Shown: positions 4,301 to 59,648 of the stretch, piece after piece
How the letters are laid out: each line of letters opens with the position of its first letter
How positions within the stretch are numbered: the stretch's first letter is position 1
Assembly (NCBI GenBank): GCA_021432635.1
Contig: MU270024.1
Coordinates: forward strand, 1-64,000
Reading direction: 5' to 3'
Source: Thozetella sp. PMI_491
Taxonomy: Eukaryota > Ascomycota > Sordariomycetes > Chaetosphaeriales > Chaetosphaeriaceae
Length of the DNA: 64,000 nucleotides
Translations under genes and position numbers: made by a program
The notes under the pieces: model-generated
Told to the model about the DNA's origin: nothing
The model's database searches: none
Seen by the model: only the letters and a program-made list of their open reading frames with translations

Positions 4301-4799
4301 CTTATGGTAGTCGTTATGTGTCTTGTCCAGATTAGCAAATTTCTCACCCCTGTCCATGGCGTGGCTTATCTCCAAGGCCCCCGCTCCTGAGCCTCAGCTT
4401 ACCATAGTAGCTAGGAATATCGACCAGGGCCCTGTCGGCACTGCCGTGAGGAAGTGGTACCAGTCGTCGAGCACAACAAAATAATCTCCCCAGGTTATTA
4501 ACTGCTTCACTAGGCCTGTGTAATAATTGTCCAAACTGTGACGTGTTTTCGGGAGATGAGCAAGGGAAGCCCCTACAAGTGCCAACAGGGGGGGTGGACG
4601 GGATTTCTCTGTGGCTACGGTATTTGAAGAGGCTTGTATGTCCTCTTCCGCATGTGAAAACGCCCACTCGCGTTCGCCAGTCTCAATTTTTCTTTCTTTC
4701 AAAGCTGACGACTTTCCTAAGCTTGGACCAGTTAGGAGCATAGAAAGGAGGGCCGGCTTCTAACCAAATCTTTTTGAAGTTTCGCCTGCGCATCAGACC
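1312..4799. other. 3.5-kb gene-free stretch
   Basis: Only short, codon-unlike frames occur on both strands. Nothing could be assigned: no repeat, no tRNA and no transposase motif. The last few hundred bases should hold the promoter of the repeat-protein gene at 4800. An open minus-strand frame at 4394-4741 has no recognisable domain and I did not accept it. Confidence 0.5.
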
Positions 4800-6131
4800 A
4801 TGTTATTCACCGTGCATCTCCGAGACAGGCTCCGGTCTATGTCAGACAAGACCTCGTCTAACAACAACAAAGAGAGCCTCAAGACCACAGCGCAAAATGC
4901 CACAAACACAACAACTGCGGACAGCCGCCGAAGCATAACCTTCGACTTTGACAACGAGCTCACTCGTCACCAAGCCTTTCGGATGAACTCAGGCAATGAT
5001 GATATGAGTGCGTCAGGCCAGGGCAAGCCGCCGCCAGCCTACTCGCGCTATCACCGAGACTCGGGAGTGTTCATGAGAAACGATGTCCGCGATTCGTCCA
5101 AGAGACGATCGACCCGTTCGCGAGATGTCTCGCCTATGTCACGGGGCTCTTTTTCGAGCAGCCGACCCCTTTCGGCGCGAATGCCACGTCTGTCCTCCGA
5201 CACAGATGATAGCAAACGCATGAGCCTGGGCTCTGCGATGGAGCAGTGGCGTCTCGAGGATGAAGAGTGGCAGAGCGCAAGAGGAAACGGTGAATCACTC
5301 ACCGTGCTGCTAACCCCGACGCTAACAACCACGTCGACGTTGTCGTCCACATCCGCATCCCAGGAGACACTATCTGCATGGCCTTCGCAGTCACCCTTTG
5401 ACGAGGGCAAGGGCAGGAGTCTTAGCCTTGGTGCGGCCATGGAGCAGTGGCGCCGCGAGGAAGATGAGGATGCAAGACATAACGGCCAGCTCATCTCAAT
5501 GGCATCACCACCCGCAGCTATATCTACGTACACTGCCCCATCCGGAGCCTGGCCGAAGCTGTCCAGGCGGTTGTTAGTATCATCCCCTGCGGGGGACGAG
5601 GGCCCCACTCCGACCCTAGGTCCCGCGATGGATCAGTGGAGGGTGGAAGCTGAAGAAGAGCTGCGGACGAGGAAGACCATGGGTGCAAAAATTCCGGTTC
5701 TGCTGCCGCTGGCGCCCTCCCGCTCCGTGTCGAAGTGGCCGTCGCGGTCGCCATTCAACAAGGAAAGCAGCAGAGATATCAGCATTGTCGCTGCCATGGA
5801 GCAGTGGCGCGTCGAAGCAGAGGATAATAAAGGGGGGGCCCAGCAACATACCGAGACGCCACAGCTGGATCAGAAGTCTGTACAAGCGTCGCCCTTATTC
5901 GGGGAAGACGTGAGTGGGCACAGGCTCGTCACCCTCGGCCCCGCCATGGAACAATGGAGGCTCGAAGAACTAGACCAGTGGAGAAATGATGGTGGGACCG
6001 CTGCAATCACTTTGCCCAAGCGCATCATTCAATCGCCAGCCTCCGGGCTCACGTCAAGGGTAAAACCCGACCGAGCAATGAGCCTAGGGCCAGCAATGGA
6101 GGCATGGCGATTAGAAGAGGTATGCTGGTGA
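4800..6131 (+). CDS. Disordered protein with six AMEQWR repeats
   Basis: Open frame of 443 residues; translation may start at 4800 or at the in-frame ATG at 4839. I do not recognise the family. The N-terminal third is Ser/Thr/Asn/Arg-rich and looks disordered. From residue 141 a 14-residue motif, consensus [MLVI]-[ST]-[LI]-G-x-A-M-E-Q-W-R-x-E-[ED], recurs six times at about 141, 208, 271, 327, 377 and 427, with spacing shrinking from 67 to 50 residues. Copy 3 has MDQW and copy 6 has MEAW. A secondary motif WPSxSPF precedes two of the copies. No signal peptide or membrane segment is seen. A basic residue stands near the Ser of several copies (KRMS, GRSLS), so phosphorylation is possible (inference). 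The frame ends three residues after the sixth copy, where GTATGC could be a splice donor, so the C-terminus is uncertain. It may be a peptide-binding or scaffolding repeat. Confidence 0.7.
   Translation: MLFTVHLRDRLRSMSDKTSSNNNKESLKTTAQNATNTTTADSRRSITFDFDNELTRHQAFRMNSGNDDMSASGQGKPPPAYSRYHRDSGVFMRNDVRDSSKRRSTRSRDVSPMSRGSFSSSRPLSARMPRLSSDTDDSKRMSLGSAMEQWRLEDEEWQSARGNGESLTVLLTPTLTTTSTLSSTSASQETLSAWPSQSPFDEGKGRSLSLGAAMEQWRREEDEDARHNGQLISMASPPAAISTYTAPSGAWPKLSRRLLVSSPAGDEGPTPTLGPAMDQWRVEAEEELRTRKTMGAKIPVLLPLAPSRSVSKWPSRSPFNKESSRDISIVAAMEQWRVEAEDNKGGAQQHTETPQLDQKSVQASPLFGEDVSGHRLVTLGPAMEQWRLEELDQWRNDGGTAAITLPKRIIQSPASGLTSRVKPDRAMSLGPAMEAWRLEEVCW
5218..6119 (+). repeat. Six-copy protein-coding repeat array (AMEQWR)
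   Basis: DNA encoding the six copies of the 14-residue motif in the gene at 4800-6131. Each copy is about 42 nt, separated by 108-160 nt of unrelated Ser/Pro-rich coding sequence. The codons differ between copies (for example ATGGAGCAGTGG versus ATGGAACAATGG), so selection has probably kept the amino acid motif rather than recent DNA duplication. Confidence 0.75.
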
Positions 6132-8176
6132 ACTCTGGCCGGCATAGGAAATGTTTGCTGTATACTGTCTACGCAACGACATTATTAACCACTCTGTGTA
6201 ATATTTAGTAGAAAATCGCCGTGTATTAAAGCAAGATAGGTTCGATAGATGGGAAACACGGTTTAATGTTTACGACGAAGCTCTGCACTAGGAGAGTCCG
6301 GTATAATAACTAATATAAGATCCTGTATAGGCTTTGTGCATCAAGTGGTCGTTGATTCCCACAGCCAGGACGCCAATCCGCTCCGATCCCTAAGTGATAG
6401 CAAACGGCGACGACTCAAACGCGCCCCTAAGGCTCTGAGGTGATGAATACCCGCCTGGGGTTCACACTACTTGGTATATGGACTGGTCAGCCCGACGCCG
6501 AAGTAGTCGATTCATTTGCCGGACAGAGACACGGCCGTCTCAGTGGACCGGGAAATAGGGGAGTTTCAACATAATAGCTTACCACTACGATACATGGAAC
6601 CCAACGTCATGAAGCTCTTGACCTACAGCTGCCTACGCCCATCGGCCGAAGCCATCTCGATCAAGAGCCAAAGTACGTACCTCGTAAGGTGCCTTGCGGG
6701 GTGGGTGCATTCGCGGCGAGATCTAGAACTTGCTATGATAAAAGTGCAACTAAATTTACAGTTTTTGGTGGTTGACATCCTCGAGGAAATCCCTGAATCA
6801 TAGAGGTATATAACATAAGGGACAGCTATAAAGGCAGATGTACATTTACAGTTAGAAATCATGACGGTTCGACACCTGCTTTGATCGGAATGAATAGGAC
6901 TGGCTTGCCTTCTAAAGACGCAGGCATTCCAGTAGTAACCCTTCGTGTTGTAATTATTTGAACGCGGGATAATCGGCAGAAAAAAATCCACGTAACCTTT
7001 CATCAAGTTCCACGTATAATTAGACATGATGAGGTGGAGCATTCTAATGCGAGATGAGAGCAGGTGCAGCTACAACCAAGCTGTGTGGCTTTGTAGATTA
7101 AAGCTTGATGCGGGACAATATCCTGGATACAGTGAGCTCGGAAGTGCAGTTGACCATCTAACCCTTGAGCCTAGGGTATAAGTTTGGTTGCCATGATGTA
7201 GATAACGAAGTAGTGGATCCGGAATTAATAGATTCTTATCTCTATGGGACCCCTAGGAGTGATAAGACGCGCTCACAGGGGCGCGATTCATTCATTCCTC
7301 GTGCCGTAGATAGGAACGTCACGTGTCGGCATCACGAATCCGTGACGTGAGGATGACGGCCCGACGGCAGACTAGCTAGTCACAGCAGTTGACCCTATCG
7401 CACAATCCTAACCGGTCATTACTCGGCAGTTCTAAACTCGAGCAGCAATTAGACGGCAACTATTTACGGAAATAATCCTGGATGAAATTAGAGGGTCGCT
7501 GAGCCAAAACTCGCCTACCAGGTTCTAAGCACCTCAGCAATGACCTAGATTGTGGTCTCGATTTCTATTGCTTGGAGGAGTGTCTGTACCTGGAAGTTAT
7601 AGCGGCGCTGCGCAACGGTCTGGCCTTCTGATACAATATAGTTGCTACCTAGTTTATCTTTCGCTGGGTCCACCGCGTCGGGCCGAGCAGATCGTAGCAC
7701 AATTAGCCGAGATGCATTTGATCGGTCACATACTCCCGATCTTGACGCTTTGATAAGGGGACCCACTCTAACCCCGCGTTCCTCCTGAGCACTGGCGCAA
7801 ACAATCCTTTCCATTGGTCACAGTCTATAGACGAGGTACCGTATAGCATATGCCGCTCTTCATCTAGGGCACATTAGCAACAGGTAGTCGTTGTCGATAG
7901 GCTGTCTCCCCGGTCCGAAGATAGTTGACCTCCTCGCCCCGTCGGGTAGTCTGCACGTGACTACTGCGGTGTACTACACTAATATCTGGTGGATGGTTGT
8001 CAGCTCTGGAGCTTTCCTACTAAGATAACATTATTTCCCGTTGGTACACGACCTTGATAACAAAGGTCGAATATATAAATATTCGCTGGGCGAGCTACTC
8101 GGAAGATGTTTCCCACCTAAGATCTCTTTAGGCATCCAAGACTGGATTCGGTGGACACATCACCTGCATACACACC
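6132..8176. other. 2-kb gene-free stretch
   Basis: No coding region is supported on either strand. An AT-rich TATA-like block lies near the 3' end (8069-8084). The remainder shows nothing I can name. Confidence 0.5.
8069..8084 (+). promoter_or_regulatory. Putative TATA box of the tannase gene
   Basis: The sequence GAATATATAAATATTC includes TATATAAA and is itself an inverted repeat. It lies about 100 nt before the ATG at 8177, a usual distance for a fungal core promoter. Assigned by position only. Confidence 0.45.
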
Positions 8177-9832
8177 ATGATTTCCCCCAAACCACTACCT
8201 GGATCTCTAGCATGGGTTTTGCTTGCCATCGGCCATGTCACCGGCTTTCGTGTTGCAAACGACGGGGCAGAGGTCCTTGAGACGTCGGCATGCTCCGCAT
8301 CAGCTATCGTCATACCCTCATTTACAGGCCTCGAGGTGACCAAAATAGAAGCTACGAAAGTCTTGAATGATTCAGTCACCTTGGACTGGGATGTTCTGTC
8401 CAACACCTTTGCGTCTGGTGTAGTCTCGGGGTTGAATTATTGCAACATCACCGTCACGACAATTCACCCCGGTTATCACAACATACCAATCAAAACTGTT
8501 GTGCTGTTGCCACTGCCTGGTTGGAATGAGCGCATGATGGGCATGGGAGGAAGTGGATTTACGGCGGGGAATATCCCTGGTCGCACGCAGTCACCTCTTA
8601 CCCTGGGCTTTGCAAGTGTATCAACATCAGCTGGTGTATCTGCAAACACAATGGCCAATGCCAGCACGGAAGCCGCTAGCTCAGATACATGGGCTCTGAG
8701 AAGCACTGGTAATGTTGACACAGAAATGCTCTCTATCTTCGGCTACCGAGCCCTCGGAGACGCGGCCGCTATCGGCAAGGCAGTGGTCACGAGTTTCTAC
8801 AAGCAGCCCCCGAAGTTTAAGTACTGGAACGGCTGCTCTACGGGAGGGCGCCAGGCGCACATGCTGGCGCAGAGATATCCTGACGCATACGACGGGCTAT
8901 TAGCTGGCGCACCAGCAATTAACTGGGCACGATTTCTCTCATCTGATATTGTACCAGAGCTCGTATTCATCAAAGAGCGTTATATTCCGCCACCTTGCGA
9001 GATGGCTGCCATCACACATGCTGCAGTGGAAGCATGTGACACGATTGATGGCGTCAAAGACGGCTATGTGATGGACCCGTCTAAATGCAATTTCACGGCT
9101 TATTCGATTCTTGGCAGGACTATTACCTGCACCGACTTGCCGAGTGGATTCGTGAACATCTCACTGGCAGCTGTTAAGGCAGCCGAGGCGGCCTGGGCCG
9201 GTTATCACACTGCGGAAGGCCTTTGGCGTTACTATGGTGTGAGTCGGTCTACAAACCTTACCGGCCCTGCTGGTGTGGTCAACACCAAGTGCGATTCAGC
9301 TGGAAGGTGTTTGGCCGCCCCGTTTAGTATTGGGACGAACTGGGTCAGAAATTTTTTGATGAAGGATCTTGACGCTGATCCTATGAACTTGACCATCGCC
9401 CAGTTTGATAGGCTGTGGCAACTCTCTGTCCAGGAGTGGTCGTCGTTCATGGGGTCAGACGACCCGGATCTGAGCGCATTCAGAAATGTAGGAGGTAAGT
9501 TCTTGGTGTGGCACGGATTGGACGATACGCAAATTCAGCCAGGCGGCTCTGAGGAGTATTTCAATCGTGTTCTGGCCGGTGATGCGAACGCAACGGATTA
9601 CCTAAGATACTTTCAGGCTCCAGGGGTCGGTCACTGCCGCAATGGTTATGGCGCATTTCCCGGCAGATCCCTCGAATCGTTGATGGATTGGGTTGAAAAA
9701 GGAATTGCCCCTGACACTTTGTACGGGAGAACCTGGAAGGGCGAAGAGCGACCAATTTGTCTCTATCCAAAGAAGGTAGTCTACAACGGAGGCAAGAACA
9801 CAAGCGCAATTCATTCATTTGCCTGTGCCTGA
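8177..9832 (+). CDS. Secreted tannase/feruloyl esterase family protein
   Basis: Intronless gene of 551 residues. Residues 1-23 form a signal peptide. The alpha/beta-hydrolase core has the serine motif G-C-S-T-G-G with Ser221, the acid in WHGLDD (Asp449/450) and His486 in GHCRNGYG. Cys220 and Cys487 next to Ser and His form the CS-D-HC disulfide typical of the fungal tannase/feruloyl esterase family. A calcium-binding loop is seen in the lid region (CDTIDGVKDGYVMDP, about 288-301). Several sequons (NIT, NAS, NFT, NIS, NLT, NAT) fit secretion. Family enzymes hydrolyse galloyl or hydroxycinnamoyl esters of plant phenolics outside the cell. Substrate specificity lies in the lid and cannot be read by eye. 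The length is normal for the family. Confidence 0.92.
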   Translation: MISPKPLPGSLAWVLLAIGHVTGFRVANDGAEVLETSACSASAIVIPSFTGLEVTKIEATKVLNDSVTLDWDVLSNTFASGVVSGLNYCNITVTTIHPGYHNIPIKTVVLLPLPGWNERMMGMGGSGFTAGNIPGRTQSPLTLGFASVSTSAGVSANTMANASTEAASSDTWALRSTGNVDTEMLSIFGYRALGDAAAIGKAVVTSFYKQPPKFKYWNGCSTGGRQAHMLAQRYPDAYDGLLAGAPAINWARFLSSDIVPELVFIKERYIPPPCEMAAITHAAVEACDTIDGVKDGYVMDPSKCNFTAYSILGRTITCTDLPSGFVNISLAAVKAAEAAWAGYHTAEGLWRYYGVSRSTNLTGPAGVVNTKCDSAGRCLAAPFSIGTNWVRNFLMKDLDADPMNLTIAQFDRLWQLSVQEWSSFMGSDDPDLSAFRNVGGKFLVWHGLDDTQIQPGGSEEYFNRVLAGDANATDYLRYFQAPGVGHCRNGYGAFPGRSLESLMDWVEKGIAPDTLYGRTWKGEERPICLYPKKVVYNGGKNTSAIHSFACA

Positions 9833-50236: not shown

Positions 50237-50360
50237 GAGGACGCACATTCTAATCTAGTCTGGCAGTTCGCTGAAGCATCTTGGACTCATCCTGCTTACT
50301 GTCTGGCTTACACAACCTTAACGCCTTTTTCTCCCACTTGTTGTCTTCAGAACTCTAGAC

Positions 50361-51500
50361 ATGGAGCTCTCCCGCTTCCTCGCCTTCTTGGCAGCCGTCT
50401 TGCCCCTTGCGTACGGTGCTCCCACGCAGACCACAACCAGCCTCCACCCCAAGATCCTGGCCGCCATGAAGCGGGACTTGGGGCTGGACGCCGAGCAGGC
50501 CACTGCTCGTGTCGCCCGGGATCTGTGGGCCACCGATGTCATCGAGCAGCTGCGCAGCTCTGCGGGTGACTCGTTCGCCGGTGCTTGGATCGCCGAGGAC
50601 GGCACTACGCTAAATATCGGCGTCACTGACCCAGCCTTGGCCACCGAGGTGACTGCTGCTGGCGCCACGCCGGCTATCATGGCCAACAGCCTCTCCAAGC
50701 TTGAAGAGGCCAAGCTGGCACTTGACAATCTGGACATCGACCAACTCACCACCCGCGATACGGGCTCGGCCGACTCGGGCGTCGCGGCGTATTACGTCGA
50801 CATTGCCGCCAACAAGCTCGTCCTAGAGGCACTCGCTGGCAGTACGACCCACGCTGAGGCGCTGGCCGCGCAGGTCGGGCTCGTTGCATCCGAGTTCGAG
50901 GTGCGGACAGTTGAGACGATGCCGACCACCTTCGCCACGGTCCTCGGTGGTGATGCCTACATCATCGCGCAAAGGGCTCGGTGCTCCATCGGCTTCTCGG
51001 TGACAACTGGCTTCGTTTCGGCTGGCCACTGTGGCAGCGCAGGTAATTCTGTCACAACCAGCAGCGGTGCTTCGCTTGGAACCTTCTCAGCTTCGGTCTT
51101 CCCAGGCAGCGCCGACATGAGTTACATCCGCACTGTCAGCGGAACCACCCTCTTGGGCTACATCGACGGCTACGGCCAGGGTAACCTGCCCGTGTCGGGC
51201 AGCACCGCGGCCGCCACCGGAGCCAGTATCTGCCGGTCCGGCTCCACCACCGGTGTCCACTGTGGCACAGTCCGCGCCCTGGGTGCGACGGTCAACTACG
51301 CCGAAGGACGTGTCACCGGGCTCACCCAAACCAGTGTGTGCGCCGAGCCTGGTGACTCGGGCGGCTCCTTTTACTCCGGTGCCCAGGCCCAGGGGGTCAC
51401 CTCAGGAGGCTCCGGCGACTGCACCAGCGGCGGCACAACCTACTTCCAGCCTGTCAACGAAATTCTGTCAACCTACGGCCTCACGTTGGTTAAGGCTTGA
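50361..51500 (+). CDS. Secreted alpha-lytic/streptogrisin-type serine protease
   Basis: Intronless, GC-rich gene of 379 residues. A signal peptide (about 1-19) and a prodomain of about 170 residues are followed by the mature protease from about residue 190. The chymotrypsin-like triad is His223 (GFVSAGHCG), Asp252 (PGSADMSYI) and Ser333 (CAEPGDSGGSFY). The block RCSIGFSVTTGFVSAGHCG and the disulfide pattern match bacterial alpha-lytic/streptogrisin proteases and their fungal relatives. The fungal branch is known to be of likely actinobacterial origin by lateral transfer. The lack of introns and the GC-rich codon use, unlike most neighbours, agree with that history. The enzyme is self-processing and acts outside the cell. 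The promoter carries duplicated blocks and a TATA box. Confidence 0.93.
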   Translation: MELSRFLAFLAAVLPLAYGAPTQTTTSLHPKILAAMKRDLGLDAEQATARVARDLWATDVIEQLRSSAGDSFAGAWIAEDGTTLNIGVTDPALATEVTAAGATPAIMANSLSKLEEAKLALDNLDIDQLTTRDTGSADSGVAAYYVDIAANKLVLEALAGSTTHAEALAAQVGLVASEFEVRTVETMPTTFATVLGGDAYIIAQRARCSIGFSVTTGFVSAGHCGSAGNSVTTSSGASLGTFSASVFPGSADMSYIRTVSGTTLLGYIDGYGQGNLPVSGSTAAATGASICRSGSTTGVHCGTVRALGATVNYAEGRVTGLTQTSVCAEPGDSGGSFYSGAQAQGVTSGGSGDCTSGGTTYFQPVNEILSTYGLTLVKA

Positions 51501-57702: not shown

Positions 57703-58609
57703 TTCGGAATTGTGTTTGTCTCTAAGAGGTTCTGGGCAATTCCGTGTCTGACTAGTGCACCAGCTCTAGTAAAATATCTAGCCAACAATAGTCATTCCTT
57801 CCGCCTTTTCCGCAAATCTGTCACTCAGTTTTTTATTTCCTTTTCTTACTAGCTAGTATCTAAACTATTTTATATTGCCCCATTTGACTCTTATACACTG
57901 TTTCTAGTACCAGCACCTAACGAGCTACAAATTTGCTACATATGGCTCCATAGGAAATATACATGTTTAATAACGCGATTTCAGGCACATATTACACTGC
58001 AATCTTTAGGCTCTTTATATAAATAGGATATCAGTCCCTTATAAGGGTCTATATGTAGCATCAAATGCCTCTTACCCAGCTCCTTTATGACTGGGTGGGG
58101 TTGAGTTGGTCTGCTGATTGAAGGACTTCGAATATTCAGAAGATGATCTGCACACAGCGGGTTCACCACACAGTGGGCCAACTACTCTTGGCTATGGGAA
58201 TTTAGTATAAATTAGGGAAAGAGGCGCATATCCCCTGACAGAACCAAAGTTAAAGAGGAGCAAGGAGTTCCTTTTTCCAGCGCGCCCGGAGGGTCATGAT
58301 AGGTCTCCCTGCAGGATTGAGCCCCCGGCCCTACACAAAACTGGATTTAATTAGTCTGAGTAGGGTTCGCCGGAAGCGGCACTTTGTAGCCCGCCACTGG
58401 GTTCTTTGTGGAATGTTTTTGGGGGGCAGTGTTCATCACATGCACGCCAAGCGCATCGTGAATGGCCAAGTGCGCTAGGGCCAAGACAGAAGTGGTACCA
58501 CGGCCGAGATTACAACCGGATTTGTGAGCTCACCACAACAACTTCACCTAGGATATCTCCGTCAACTCTTTAGCATTCAACATAAGATCAAAATTGAACG
58601 ACAAGTAAA
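57703..58609. other. Intergenic, enoyl reductase to lactate dehydrogenase
   Basis: About 900 nt, AT-rich at 57770-58060. TATAAATTAG at about 58208 is a distant TATA-like element. No gene is supported. Confidence 0.4.
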
Positions 58610-59648
58610 ATGGACTCTCAAGTTTCCATCGTCGATGGCAAGGTGCGCGCTCCCTTCACTCGCCAGGTTGAAGAACCAAGATTGGAAGGCGGAGAACTGC
58701 GCTGACCGAAATACTAATGAACAGCACACCAAAATCGTCATTATCGGCGTTGGCTCCGTCGGGGCGACAGCCGCTTACGCCCTGATCATGAGCCGCCTCG
58801 CTGCCGAGCTCGTGCTGATCGACGTGGACAAGCACAAAGCCGAAGGTGAGGCAATGGATCTTAGCCACGCGGCGTCTTTTTATCAGGTCAAAGTTCGCGT
58901 GGGTGGCTACGAAGACTGCGCCGCTGCGGCCGTCGTCATCCTCACGGCCGGAGTCAAGCAAAAGCCTGGGCAGTCACGCATGGAGCTGCTGCAGATCAAT
59001 AATGCTCTTTTCAAGCACATGATCCCCGAGATCGTAAAGTATGCGCCAAACACCATCCTGATGGTTGCGACAAATCCCGTCGACGTTTTGACGCACTCCG
59101 CATTGCAGCTGTCGGGTTTCCCACCGCAGCGCGTGATCGGGACCGGGACCGTCCTCGACACAGCCCGTTTCCGCTACGAGCTTGGCCAGCTCCTAAAGGT
59201 CAATCCCCGCAACATCCACGCCACCATCATCGGGGAGCATGGTGACACGCAACTTCTCGTATCGTCGCTCGTGACTATCTCCGGCATGAGGTTGCCCGAC
59301 TACTGCAAGCAGGCTGGAATCGAATACGACGAGGCGGCAGTGGCGGAATGCTGCAACAGAACGAAGCGGGCCGCGTACGACATCATCCAACGCAAAGGAG
59401 CAACCAACTACGGCATCGCCAGTGTGTTGGTGACTATAGTGGAGGCAATCCTCAAGAACAGCGACGCCCTGTTGCCCGTTTCCCGCGTTGGGAACTATGC
59501 CGGCGTCGAGGACGTCGCTCTCGGCGCCGTGTGCAAGCTCAACCGCCAAGGCGCGCACCGAGACGCCCCGTTACTGCTGAGCGAGCCTGAACAGGAGGCT
59601 CTGCGCAAGTCTGCCATGAGTGTTAAGGAGGCAATATTGACTTTATAA
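58610..59648 (+). CDS. L-lactate dehydrogenase
   Basis: Two exons, 58610-58642 and 58725-59648, joined in phase 0 over an 82-nt intron (donor GTGCGC, branch TACTAAT, acceptor ACAG); 318 residues. The ATG at 58610 gives MDSQVSIVDGK followed directly by HTKIVIIGVGSVGATAAYA, the NAD-binding turn. Asp of LVLIDVD selects NAD. Catalytic features are the loop Arg96 (GQSRMELL), the substrate Arg159 in LDTARFR, the proton-relay His183 in IIGEHGDT, and VATNPVDVLTH. The length equals that of bacterial-type tetrameric LDH. It should interconvert pyruvate and L-lactate with NADH in the cytosol. L-LDH is not universal in filamentous ascomycetes, so a transferred or lineage-specific copy is possible (inference). 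It sits downstream of the enoyl reductase on the same strand. Confidence 0.92.

What the first reader, a model, noticed from the sequence alone, without database searches (positions are those of the whole stretch)
4800..6131. Six-copy AMEQWR repeat protein of unknown family
A 14-residue motif, [ML]-[ST]-L-G-x-A-M-E-Q-W-R-x-E-E, is repeated six times in a disordered Ser/Pro-rich protein. Spacing contracts regularly (67, 63, 56, 50, 50 residues) and synonymous codons differ between copies. The invariant Trp-Arg core in short helices separated by linkers is what a multivalent binding scaffold or an effector with short linear motifs would look like. I know no named family with this motif.
Basis: partly seen in the sequence, partly recalled or inferred. 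Interest (0 to 1): 0.75.

Follow-up and report, generated by a model that had tools for sequence, protein, structure and literature searches.

The report
Fungal disordered protein, six helical motifs
A fungal gene encodes a mostly unstructured protein with six copies of a short, probably helical motif; a smaller sister gene has two copies, so the motif looks like a real docking element, but its binding partner is unknown.

Summary
An uninterrupted ORF (4800-6131 +, 443 aa) carries six motif copies at spacings 67/63/56/50/50. One other member was detected in the 72.3-Mb fungal assembly: a 231-aa paralogue (C46:516774-517466) with the same layout and two copies.

(1) The motif is better written [RK]xx[ST][LI]GxAM[ED]QWRxE; K/R stands at -3 of the Ser/Thr in 7 of 8 copies, as in basophilic-kinase sites.
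(2) AlphaFold2 puts a helix on each of the six copies, one or two residues after that Ser/Thr; most of the rest is low-confidence coil.
(3) Both share PPAYSRxHRDSGV, with a WW-ligand PPxY.
(4) That island and the repeats are constrained (pN/pS 0.19-0.28); linkers less so (0.58-0.70).
(5) Linkers 1-3 resemble the paralogue's linker: growth by internal duplication, or loss in the paralogue.

No Pfam, NCBIfam, PHROGs or PDB family fits. The spacing is that of a ubiquitin-interacting motif, but its Ser is Trp in 8 of 8. PAM2 fails too.

Best reading: phospho-tunable multivalent adaptor, possibly docking an Rsp5-type ligase. Conservation in other species could not be tested.

The parts
4800..6131 (+). 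ORF, 443 aa disordered six-repeat protein (ATG 4800 is the first in-frame ATG after the upstream stop)
   Evidence: start compatible with the paralogue's N-terminus
4803..4844 (+). predicted N-terminal helix, residues 2-15
   Evidence: pLDDT below 50, weak
4929..4967 (+). conserved island 1, RSITFDFDNELTR (paralogue RNVTFDLNNERTR); 9 of 18 residues 41-58 identical, pN/pS 0.47; predicted helix 50-62
5031..5069 (+). conserved island 2, PPAYSRYHRDSGV, with a PPxY (WW-domain ligand) motif; 12 of 14 residues 77-90 identical in the paralogue, pN/pS 0.19
5214..5261 (+). motif copy 1 (KRMSLGSAMEQWRLED)
   Evidence: helix 143-161
5379..5399 (+). linker motif WPSQSPF before copy 2
   Evidence: paralogue WPVEFPSPRSPF before its copy 2
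5415..5462 (+). motif copy 2 (RSLSLGAAMEQWRREE)
   Evidence: helix 210-230
5604..5651 (+). motif copy 3 (PTPTLGPAMDQWRVEA); the only copy without a basic residue at -3
   Evidence: helix 274-291
5736..5756 (+). linker motif WPSRSPF before copy 4
5772..5819 (+). motif copy 4 (RDISIVAAMEQWRVEA)
   Evidence: helix 329-342 (low confidence)
5922..5969 (+). motif copy 5 (RLVTLGPAMEQWRLEE)
   Evidence: helix 380-396
6072..6119 (+). motif copy 6 (RAMSLGPAMEAWRLEE), at the C-terminus
   Evidence: helix 430-442 (low confidence)
6120..6208 (+). possible intron (GTATGC...TAG) that would end the protein at ...RLEE before a TAG at 6209; speculative, changes only the last three residues
   Evidence: sequence inspection; no transcript

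Best explanation
A two-gene family of intracellular, intrinsically disordered adaptor proteins of a filamentous fungus. Each repeat is a short linear motif that folds, or is held ready, as a short helix offering A-M-x-x-W-R to one partner protein. Six copies on flexible linkers would give avidity or gather several partner molecules; the paralogue does the same with two. The Ser/Thr just before each helix is preceded by a basic residue at -3, so a basophilic kinase (PKA/AGC type) could switch or tune the copies together. The shared PPAY island probably docks a WW-domain protein, most likely an Rsp5/Nedd4-type ubiquitin ligase. Shown here: the repeats, the paralogue, the lower rate of change in repeats and PPAY island, the predicted helices. 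Inferred: binding, phosphorylation, WW docking, location in the cell.
For: Six copies plus two in a paralogue with the same order of elements. pN/pS 0.20 in the repeat core (28 pairs pooled), 0.19 in the PPAY island, 0.28 and 0.24 in the aligned repeat stretches, against 0.58-0.70 in three linker stretches. AlphaFold2 helices at 143-161, 210-230, 274-291, 329-342, 380-396, 430-442, each starting 2-3 residues before the A of AM; 333 of 443 residues have pLDDT below 50 and pTM is 0.16. K or R at -3 of the Ser/Thr in 7 of 8 copies (R in 6, K in 1). PPxY once in each protein at the same aligned place. Literature: fungal alpha-arrestins bind Rsp5 through PPxY and are regulated by phosphorylation and 14-3-3 (PMC8050425, passages).
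Against: No partner, expression or phosphorylation data. One PPxY is a weak signal on its own (254 of 20,000 shuffles have one). The helices are not more amphipathic than shuffles of themselves: the hydrophobic moment exceeds the shuffle mean in only 1 of 8 copies (0.27 against 0.26), so a simple hydrophobic-face model is not supported. The helix model is from a single sequence with modest confidence: 10-residue block means 59-75 over copies 1, 2, 3 and 5, but 38-50 over copies 4 and 6. Island 1 (pN/pS 0.47) is only weakly constrained. pS is near saturation, so ratios are rough, and the alignment behind the two-gene figures pairs the paralogue's repeats with copies 1 and 2, which the linkers question. 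Copy 3 lacks the basic residue.
Confidence: 0.42

Rival explanations
1. The repeats are divergent ubiquitin-interacting motifs (UIM) or UIM-like helices for ubiquitin or Atg8-type proteins, with the PPxY recruiting Rsp5: a ubiquitin-pathway scaffold.
For: The conserved positions match the UIM spacing phi-x-x-A-phi-x-x-(S)-x-x-acid: L/I, A, M and E fit in 8 of 8 copies (consensus from passages of PMC8273247). Strict L at the first position holds in 7 of 8. The same passages say that UIMs can be disordered when free.
Against: The UIM Ser is Trp in 8 of 8 copies; none has an acidic run before the core (one Asp in copy 4 is the only acid at the three positions checked), most have K/R there. No UIM row in Pfam at E up to 10 for the window protein (HMMER filters can hide weak matches).
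Confidence: 0.1
2. The repeats are PAM2w-like motifs that bind MLLE domains of poly(A)-binding or Rrm4-type proteins.
For: L at 0 (7 of 8), P at +2 (4 of 8) and W at +7 (8 of 8) fall where the Trp variant PAM2w has them (PMC7356810, passages).
Against: The PAM2 consensus LNxxAxEFxP has N at +1 and A at +4; here these are G or V, and M, in 8 of 8 copies, and the Pro after the aromatic is absent. 0 matches to a PAM2/PAM2w pattern recalled from memory in either protein. Fungal PAM2L variants (PMC9249222, passages) have FxxP and acidic stretches, also absent.
Confidence: 0.04
3. A secreted or host-targeted effector with repeats.
For: Repeat number differs between paralogues (six against two), as in repeat-containing effectors (recalled).
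Against: No obvious signal peptide by eye in either protein; the motif is conserved rather than diversifying between the two genes.
Confidence: 0.07
4. A structural or self-assembling protein: the helices bind one another (coiled coil or condensate) rather than a separate partner.
For: Repeated helix-forming elements with a Trp and a charged tail on disordered linkers.
Against: No higher fold predicted for the single chain (pTM 0.16); no amphipathic excess. Oligomers were not modelled.
Confidence: 0.15

Closest known systems
Paralogue at G000:C46:516774-517466 (L004:3775-4467)
   Same: Same order: island TFD[FL][DN]NExTR, PPAYSRxHRDSGV, repeats RxxSLGxAM[ED]xWRxEE with a WP..SPF motif before the last; 36% identity over the best 215-column stretch, E 3e-25 for the single comparison
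   Different: 231 aa, two repeats in place of six; lies 0.2 kb from a convergent NRPS gene
Ubiquitin-interacting motif (Pfam PF02809)
   Same: phi-x-x-A-phi-x-x-?-x-x-acid spacing in a short helix
   Different: Trp in place of the UIM Ser; mostly basic in place of acidic upstream; no Pfam row
PAM2w motif of LARP4/LARP4B
   Same: Leu, sometimes Pro, and Trp at the same spacing; short motif in a disordered chain
   Different: No Asn at +1 and no Ala at +4; predicted helical
Fungal alpha-arrestins (ARTs), PPxY adaptors of Rsp5
   Same: PPxY; many candidate phosphosites
   Different: No arrestin domain (Pfam); one PPxY only; has repeats of another kind
KNL1/Spc105 MELT-repeat scaffolds (recalled, as a working analogy)
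   Same: Many copies of a phosphorylatable short motif on a disordered chain
   Different: No MELT motif; no sequence relation known

Membership tests
Ubiquitin-interacting motif | phi-x-x-Ala-phi core with an acidic residue at +10 from the first phi | tested here: met
   8 of 8 copies with phi = L/I and M
Ubiquitin-interacting motif | Ser three residues after the second phi | tested here: not met
   Trp in 8 of 8 copies
Ubiquitin-interacting motif | acidic run N-terminal to the core | tested here: not met
   0 of 8 copies have a run; K/R at -4 of the first phi in 7 of 8
Ubiquitin-interacting motif | match to the Pfam model | tested here: not met
   no UIM row at E up to 10 for the window protein; HMMER filters may hide weak matches
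PAM2 / PAM2w | L-N-x-x-A-x-x-F/W core | tested here: not met
   G or V at +1 and M at +4 in 8 of 8 copies; 0 pattern matches (pattern recalled)
Alpha-arrestin (ART) adaptor | arrestin domain | tested here: not met
   Pfam scan of the window protein and of the paralogue
Alpha-arrestin (ART) adaptor | PPxY motifs, usually several | tested here: inconclusive
   one PPxY in each protein, at the same aligned place
Multivalent short-linear-motif scaffold (a working type, not a homology family) | repeated constrained motif on faster-changing disordered linkers | tested here: met
Multivalent short-linear-motif scaffold (a working type, not a homology family) | each motif binds the same partner | not testable with these tools
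   needs binding experiments
Secreted repeat effector | secretion signal | tested here: inconclusive
   none obvious by eye in the sequences; no predictor run

The most novel reading that the evidence does not exclude
A new class of helical short linear motif, [RK]xx[ST]LGxAM[ED]QWRxE, with UIM-like geometry but Trp at the Ser position. It would read ubiquitin, an Atg8-type protein or an unknown hub, be switched by phosphorylation at the helix start at several sites at once, and sit on a chain that also docks an Rsp5-type ligase.
Probability: 0.12. Interest if true: 0.65.

Novelty: new variant of a known kind. Interest (0 to 1): 0.4.

Why it matters
If the motif is a docking element, a pair of paralogues with two and six copies is a natural experiment on motif copy number (avidity), and it comes with a precise, searchable motif, predicted contact residues and a predicted phosphoswitch. 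It also shows how an uncharacterised fungal protein without any domain hit can be broken into testable elements from one genome.

Tried and rejected
Family searches gave only rows under the curated cut-offs or chance-like: DUF5703_N E 0.017 and Ribosomal_L11_N E 0.063; phrog_10986 E 0.0068 over 13 residues and phrog_33536 E 0.35; NCBIfam none at E up to 1 for both proteins; the paralogue none in Pfam at E 0.001 or PHROGs at E 1. Ribosomal L11 also tops the PDB list at E 0.51; it rests on the stretch around copy 3 (TLGPAMDQ against PVGPALGQ) and was rejected. The repeat profile found nothing in PDB at E up to 10.

Relatives outside this genome: viral contigs gave 7 and genome contigs 20 pattern matches, none confirmed by tblastn. 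By their descriptions neither collection is one of fungi, so this says nothing on fungal conservation.

More members in the genome: the DNA pattern for AM[DE]xWR gave 44 places (29 forward, 15 reverse; control, the pattern read backwards, 8). Eight are the two genes. I read the frame at the 36 others: none has the [ST]-[LI]-G flank (one, C65:44390, reads AMEQWR but without it), and a profile scan of the window and all loci held found only the eight copies above score 12. A copy interrupted by an intron or changed within the core would be missed. Two weak tblastn rows: C21:398500-398769 (E 0.026, two stops) was read in six frames and shows no motif; C23 (E 1.38) was covered only by the profile scan.

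Amphipathic helix: tested, not above shuffles. Known linear motifs: of 29 patterns written from memory, only K/R-x-x-S/T (7 of 8) and the relaxed UIM core with Trp (7 of 8) match in register in most copies. The first conserved island is the next-best site of the repeat profile in both proteins (-6.8, -3.2), but this is within the shuffle range (mean of maxima -2.7), so a seventh degenerate copy is not claimed.

Shared neighbourhood: ORFs of at least 100 aa from about 48 kb around the paralogue matched the window at E 1e-3 only at the gene itself; a blastn of the flanks gave one 24-base match 5' of the gene (E 0.002), to a place inside the NRPS ORF, taken as chance.

Species: 5.8S rRNA and the universal ITS3 primer site were not found in the assembly, so the species was not identified.

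Literature: 'AMEQWR' in 0 papers. Six related strings gave 1 paper, by its title a clinical study, not read and taken as a chance hit. PPxY motif/Rsp5/filamentous fung/intrinsically disordered/repeat together: 0. Searches were read as listings, apart from PMC8273247; only PMC8050425, and only PMC7356810 and PMC9249222, were opened, all four for passages only.

Full report
What is there. The + strand ORF 4800-6131 codes for 443 aa, with the first in-frame ATG at 4800 after an upstream stop. The six copies have the A of AM at residues 146, 213, 276, 332, 382 and 432, spacings 67, 63, 56, 50, 50. Four of six read AMEQWR exactly. Codons differ between copies and TRF finds no DNA tandem repeat at score 30 or more in 4500-6400, so the array is old or held by constraint on the protein. 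Chance is excluded: 12 of 20,000 shuffles hold one AM[DE]xWR, and leave-one-out profile scores (25.6-44.7) exceed the best of 500 shuffles (12.3). GC3 is like that of neighbouring genes (0.64; four others 0.54-0.68).

The genome. The window is the start of contig 10 of a 72.3-Mb, 157-contig assembly. Window genes (tannase/feruloyl esterase, GST, sugar transporter, P450, fungal Zn2Cys6 regulators) point to a filamentous fungus. The species could not be named: no 5.8S or ITS3 site was found.

A paralogue. A six-frame protein search finds one other member, C46:516774-517466, 231 aa, read without intron, 36% identical. It has the same order of elements and two repeats. A genome-wide DNA pattern for AM[DE]xWR gave 44 places: 8 in the two genes, 36 elsewhere; all 36 were read in frame and none has the flanks. 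The family therefore has two detected genes here; a member with a split or changed core could be missed. No shared neighbours were found. The paralogue ends 0.2 kb from a convergent NRPS gene with condensation, AMP-binding, carrier and reductase domains.

What is conserved. The two proteins share (i) S-R-x-[IV]-T-F-D-[FL]-[DN]-N-E-x-T-R, (ii) P-P-A-Y-S-R-x-H-R-D-S-G-V, and (iii) the repeats, with W-P then S-P-F before window copies 2 and 4 and before the paralogue's second copy. Over aligned codons pN/pS is 0.19 for residues 77-90, 0.28 for 139-155 and 0.24 for 195-221, against 0.70 for 59-76, 0.61 for 96-138, 0.58 for 156-194 and 0.64 for 1-40; element (i), residues 41-58, is in between at 0.47. 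Over the 12-codon repeat core, 28 pairs pooled, it is 0.20. Synonymous change is near saturation and the alignment pairs the paralogue's repeats with copies 1 and 2, so only the contrast between regions should be used.

A better motif. Seven of eight copies have K or R three residues before the Ser/Thr (R in 6, K in 1; copy 3 has none). The motif is [RK]-x-x-[ST]-[LI]-[GV]-x-A-M-[ED]-[QAR]-W-R-x-E. A basic residue at -3 is the hallmark of basophilic-kinase sites (established knowledge). The proteins hold many more such sites (20 and 8 K/R-x-x-S/T in all), so the pattern alone is weak; what is notable is its fixed register. No phosphorylation is shown.

Structure. AlphaFold2 on the single sequence gives eight helices: 2-15, 50-62, and one on each of the six repeats (143-161, 210-230, 274-291, 329-342, 380-396, 430-442). 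Each repeat helix starts 2-3 residues before the A of AM, so one or two residues after the Ser/Thr, which would be at or near the helix cap. 333 of 443 residues are below pLDDT 50; pTM is 0.16. Confidence is uneven: 10-residue block means are 59-75 over copies 1, 2, 3 and 5 but 38-50 over copies 4 and 6. The helices are not more amphipathic than shuffles of themselves.

History of the array. Post-motif linkers were compared by local alignment with 500 shuffles each. Linker 3 against the paralogue's linker has z 9.6, linker 1 against 3 z 8.4, linker 1 against 2 z 5.4, linker 2 against the paralogue's z 5.3, linker 1 against the paralogue's z 3.3, linker 5 against the paralogue's C-terminal tail z 5.4. 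Linker 2 against 3 (z -0.2) and linkers 4 and 5 against 1, 2 and 3 (z 1.3 or less) show nothing. The six-copy array thus probably grew by internal duplication from an ancestor with at least two copies, or the paralogue lost copies; the direction is not settled. The regular contraction of spacing stays unexplained.

Function. Best reading: a disordered multivalent adaptor. The contrast of constrained motif and freer linker, the repeated helix and the copy-number difference fit this working type. PPxY in both proteins suggests a WW-domain partner; fungal Rsp5 adaptors use PPxY and are regulated by phosphorylation and 14-3-3 (PMC8050425, passages). One PPxY by itself is weak evidence (254 of 20,000 shuffles have one), but its place in a 13-residue island with 12 identities between two otherwise diverged proteins makes it stronger.

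Known motifs. UIM: phi-x-x-A-phi and the acid fit in 8 of 8 copies, the Ser is Trp in 8 of 8, and the upstream acidic run is absent: not a UIM by its definition, though it could work like one. PAM2/PAM2w: the N and A positions fail in 8 of 8. Of 29 motif patterns recalled from memory, only K/R-x-x-S/T and the relaxed UIM core recur in register in most copies. No library family fits.

Limits. Expression is unknown. A possible intron 6120-6208 would change only the last three residues. No paper in the held library contains AMEQWR; that covers the text of openly licensed papers, not sequence databases.

Noticed in passing
window 58479-59645 (+): ORF with lactate/malate dehydrogenase domains; of the 60 PDB sequences shown (159 matched), nearly all are named L-lactate dehydrogenase. 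Organisms are not in the listing; by recall the top ones are bacterial. Possibly a fungal LDH of bacterial type.
   Followed up: partly
window 50322-51497 (+): Trypsin-like protease ORF with an alpha-lytic protease prodomain (Pfam), a mostly bacterial arrangement (recalled).
   Followed up: no
L004:4674-8501 and L056:2-2749 (-): NRPS gene (condensation, AMP-binding, carrier, terminal NAD-binding reductase) convergent with the paralogue, its stop about 0.2 kb away.
   Followed up: partly
window 8132-9829 (+): Tannase/feruloyl esterase ORF, 2 kb downstream of the repeat gene.
   Followed up: no
window 4929-4967 and L004 protein residues 33-45: The first conserved island has the same RxxT-then-helix format as the repeats and is the next-best profile site in both proteins, but within shuffle range.
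   Followed up: partly
window 5051-5632 (-): A 193-codon stop-to-stop frame on the opposite strand of the repeat gene, taken as a shadow of the coding frame.
   Followed up: no
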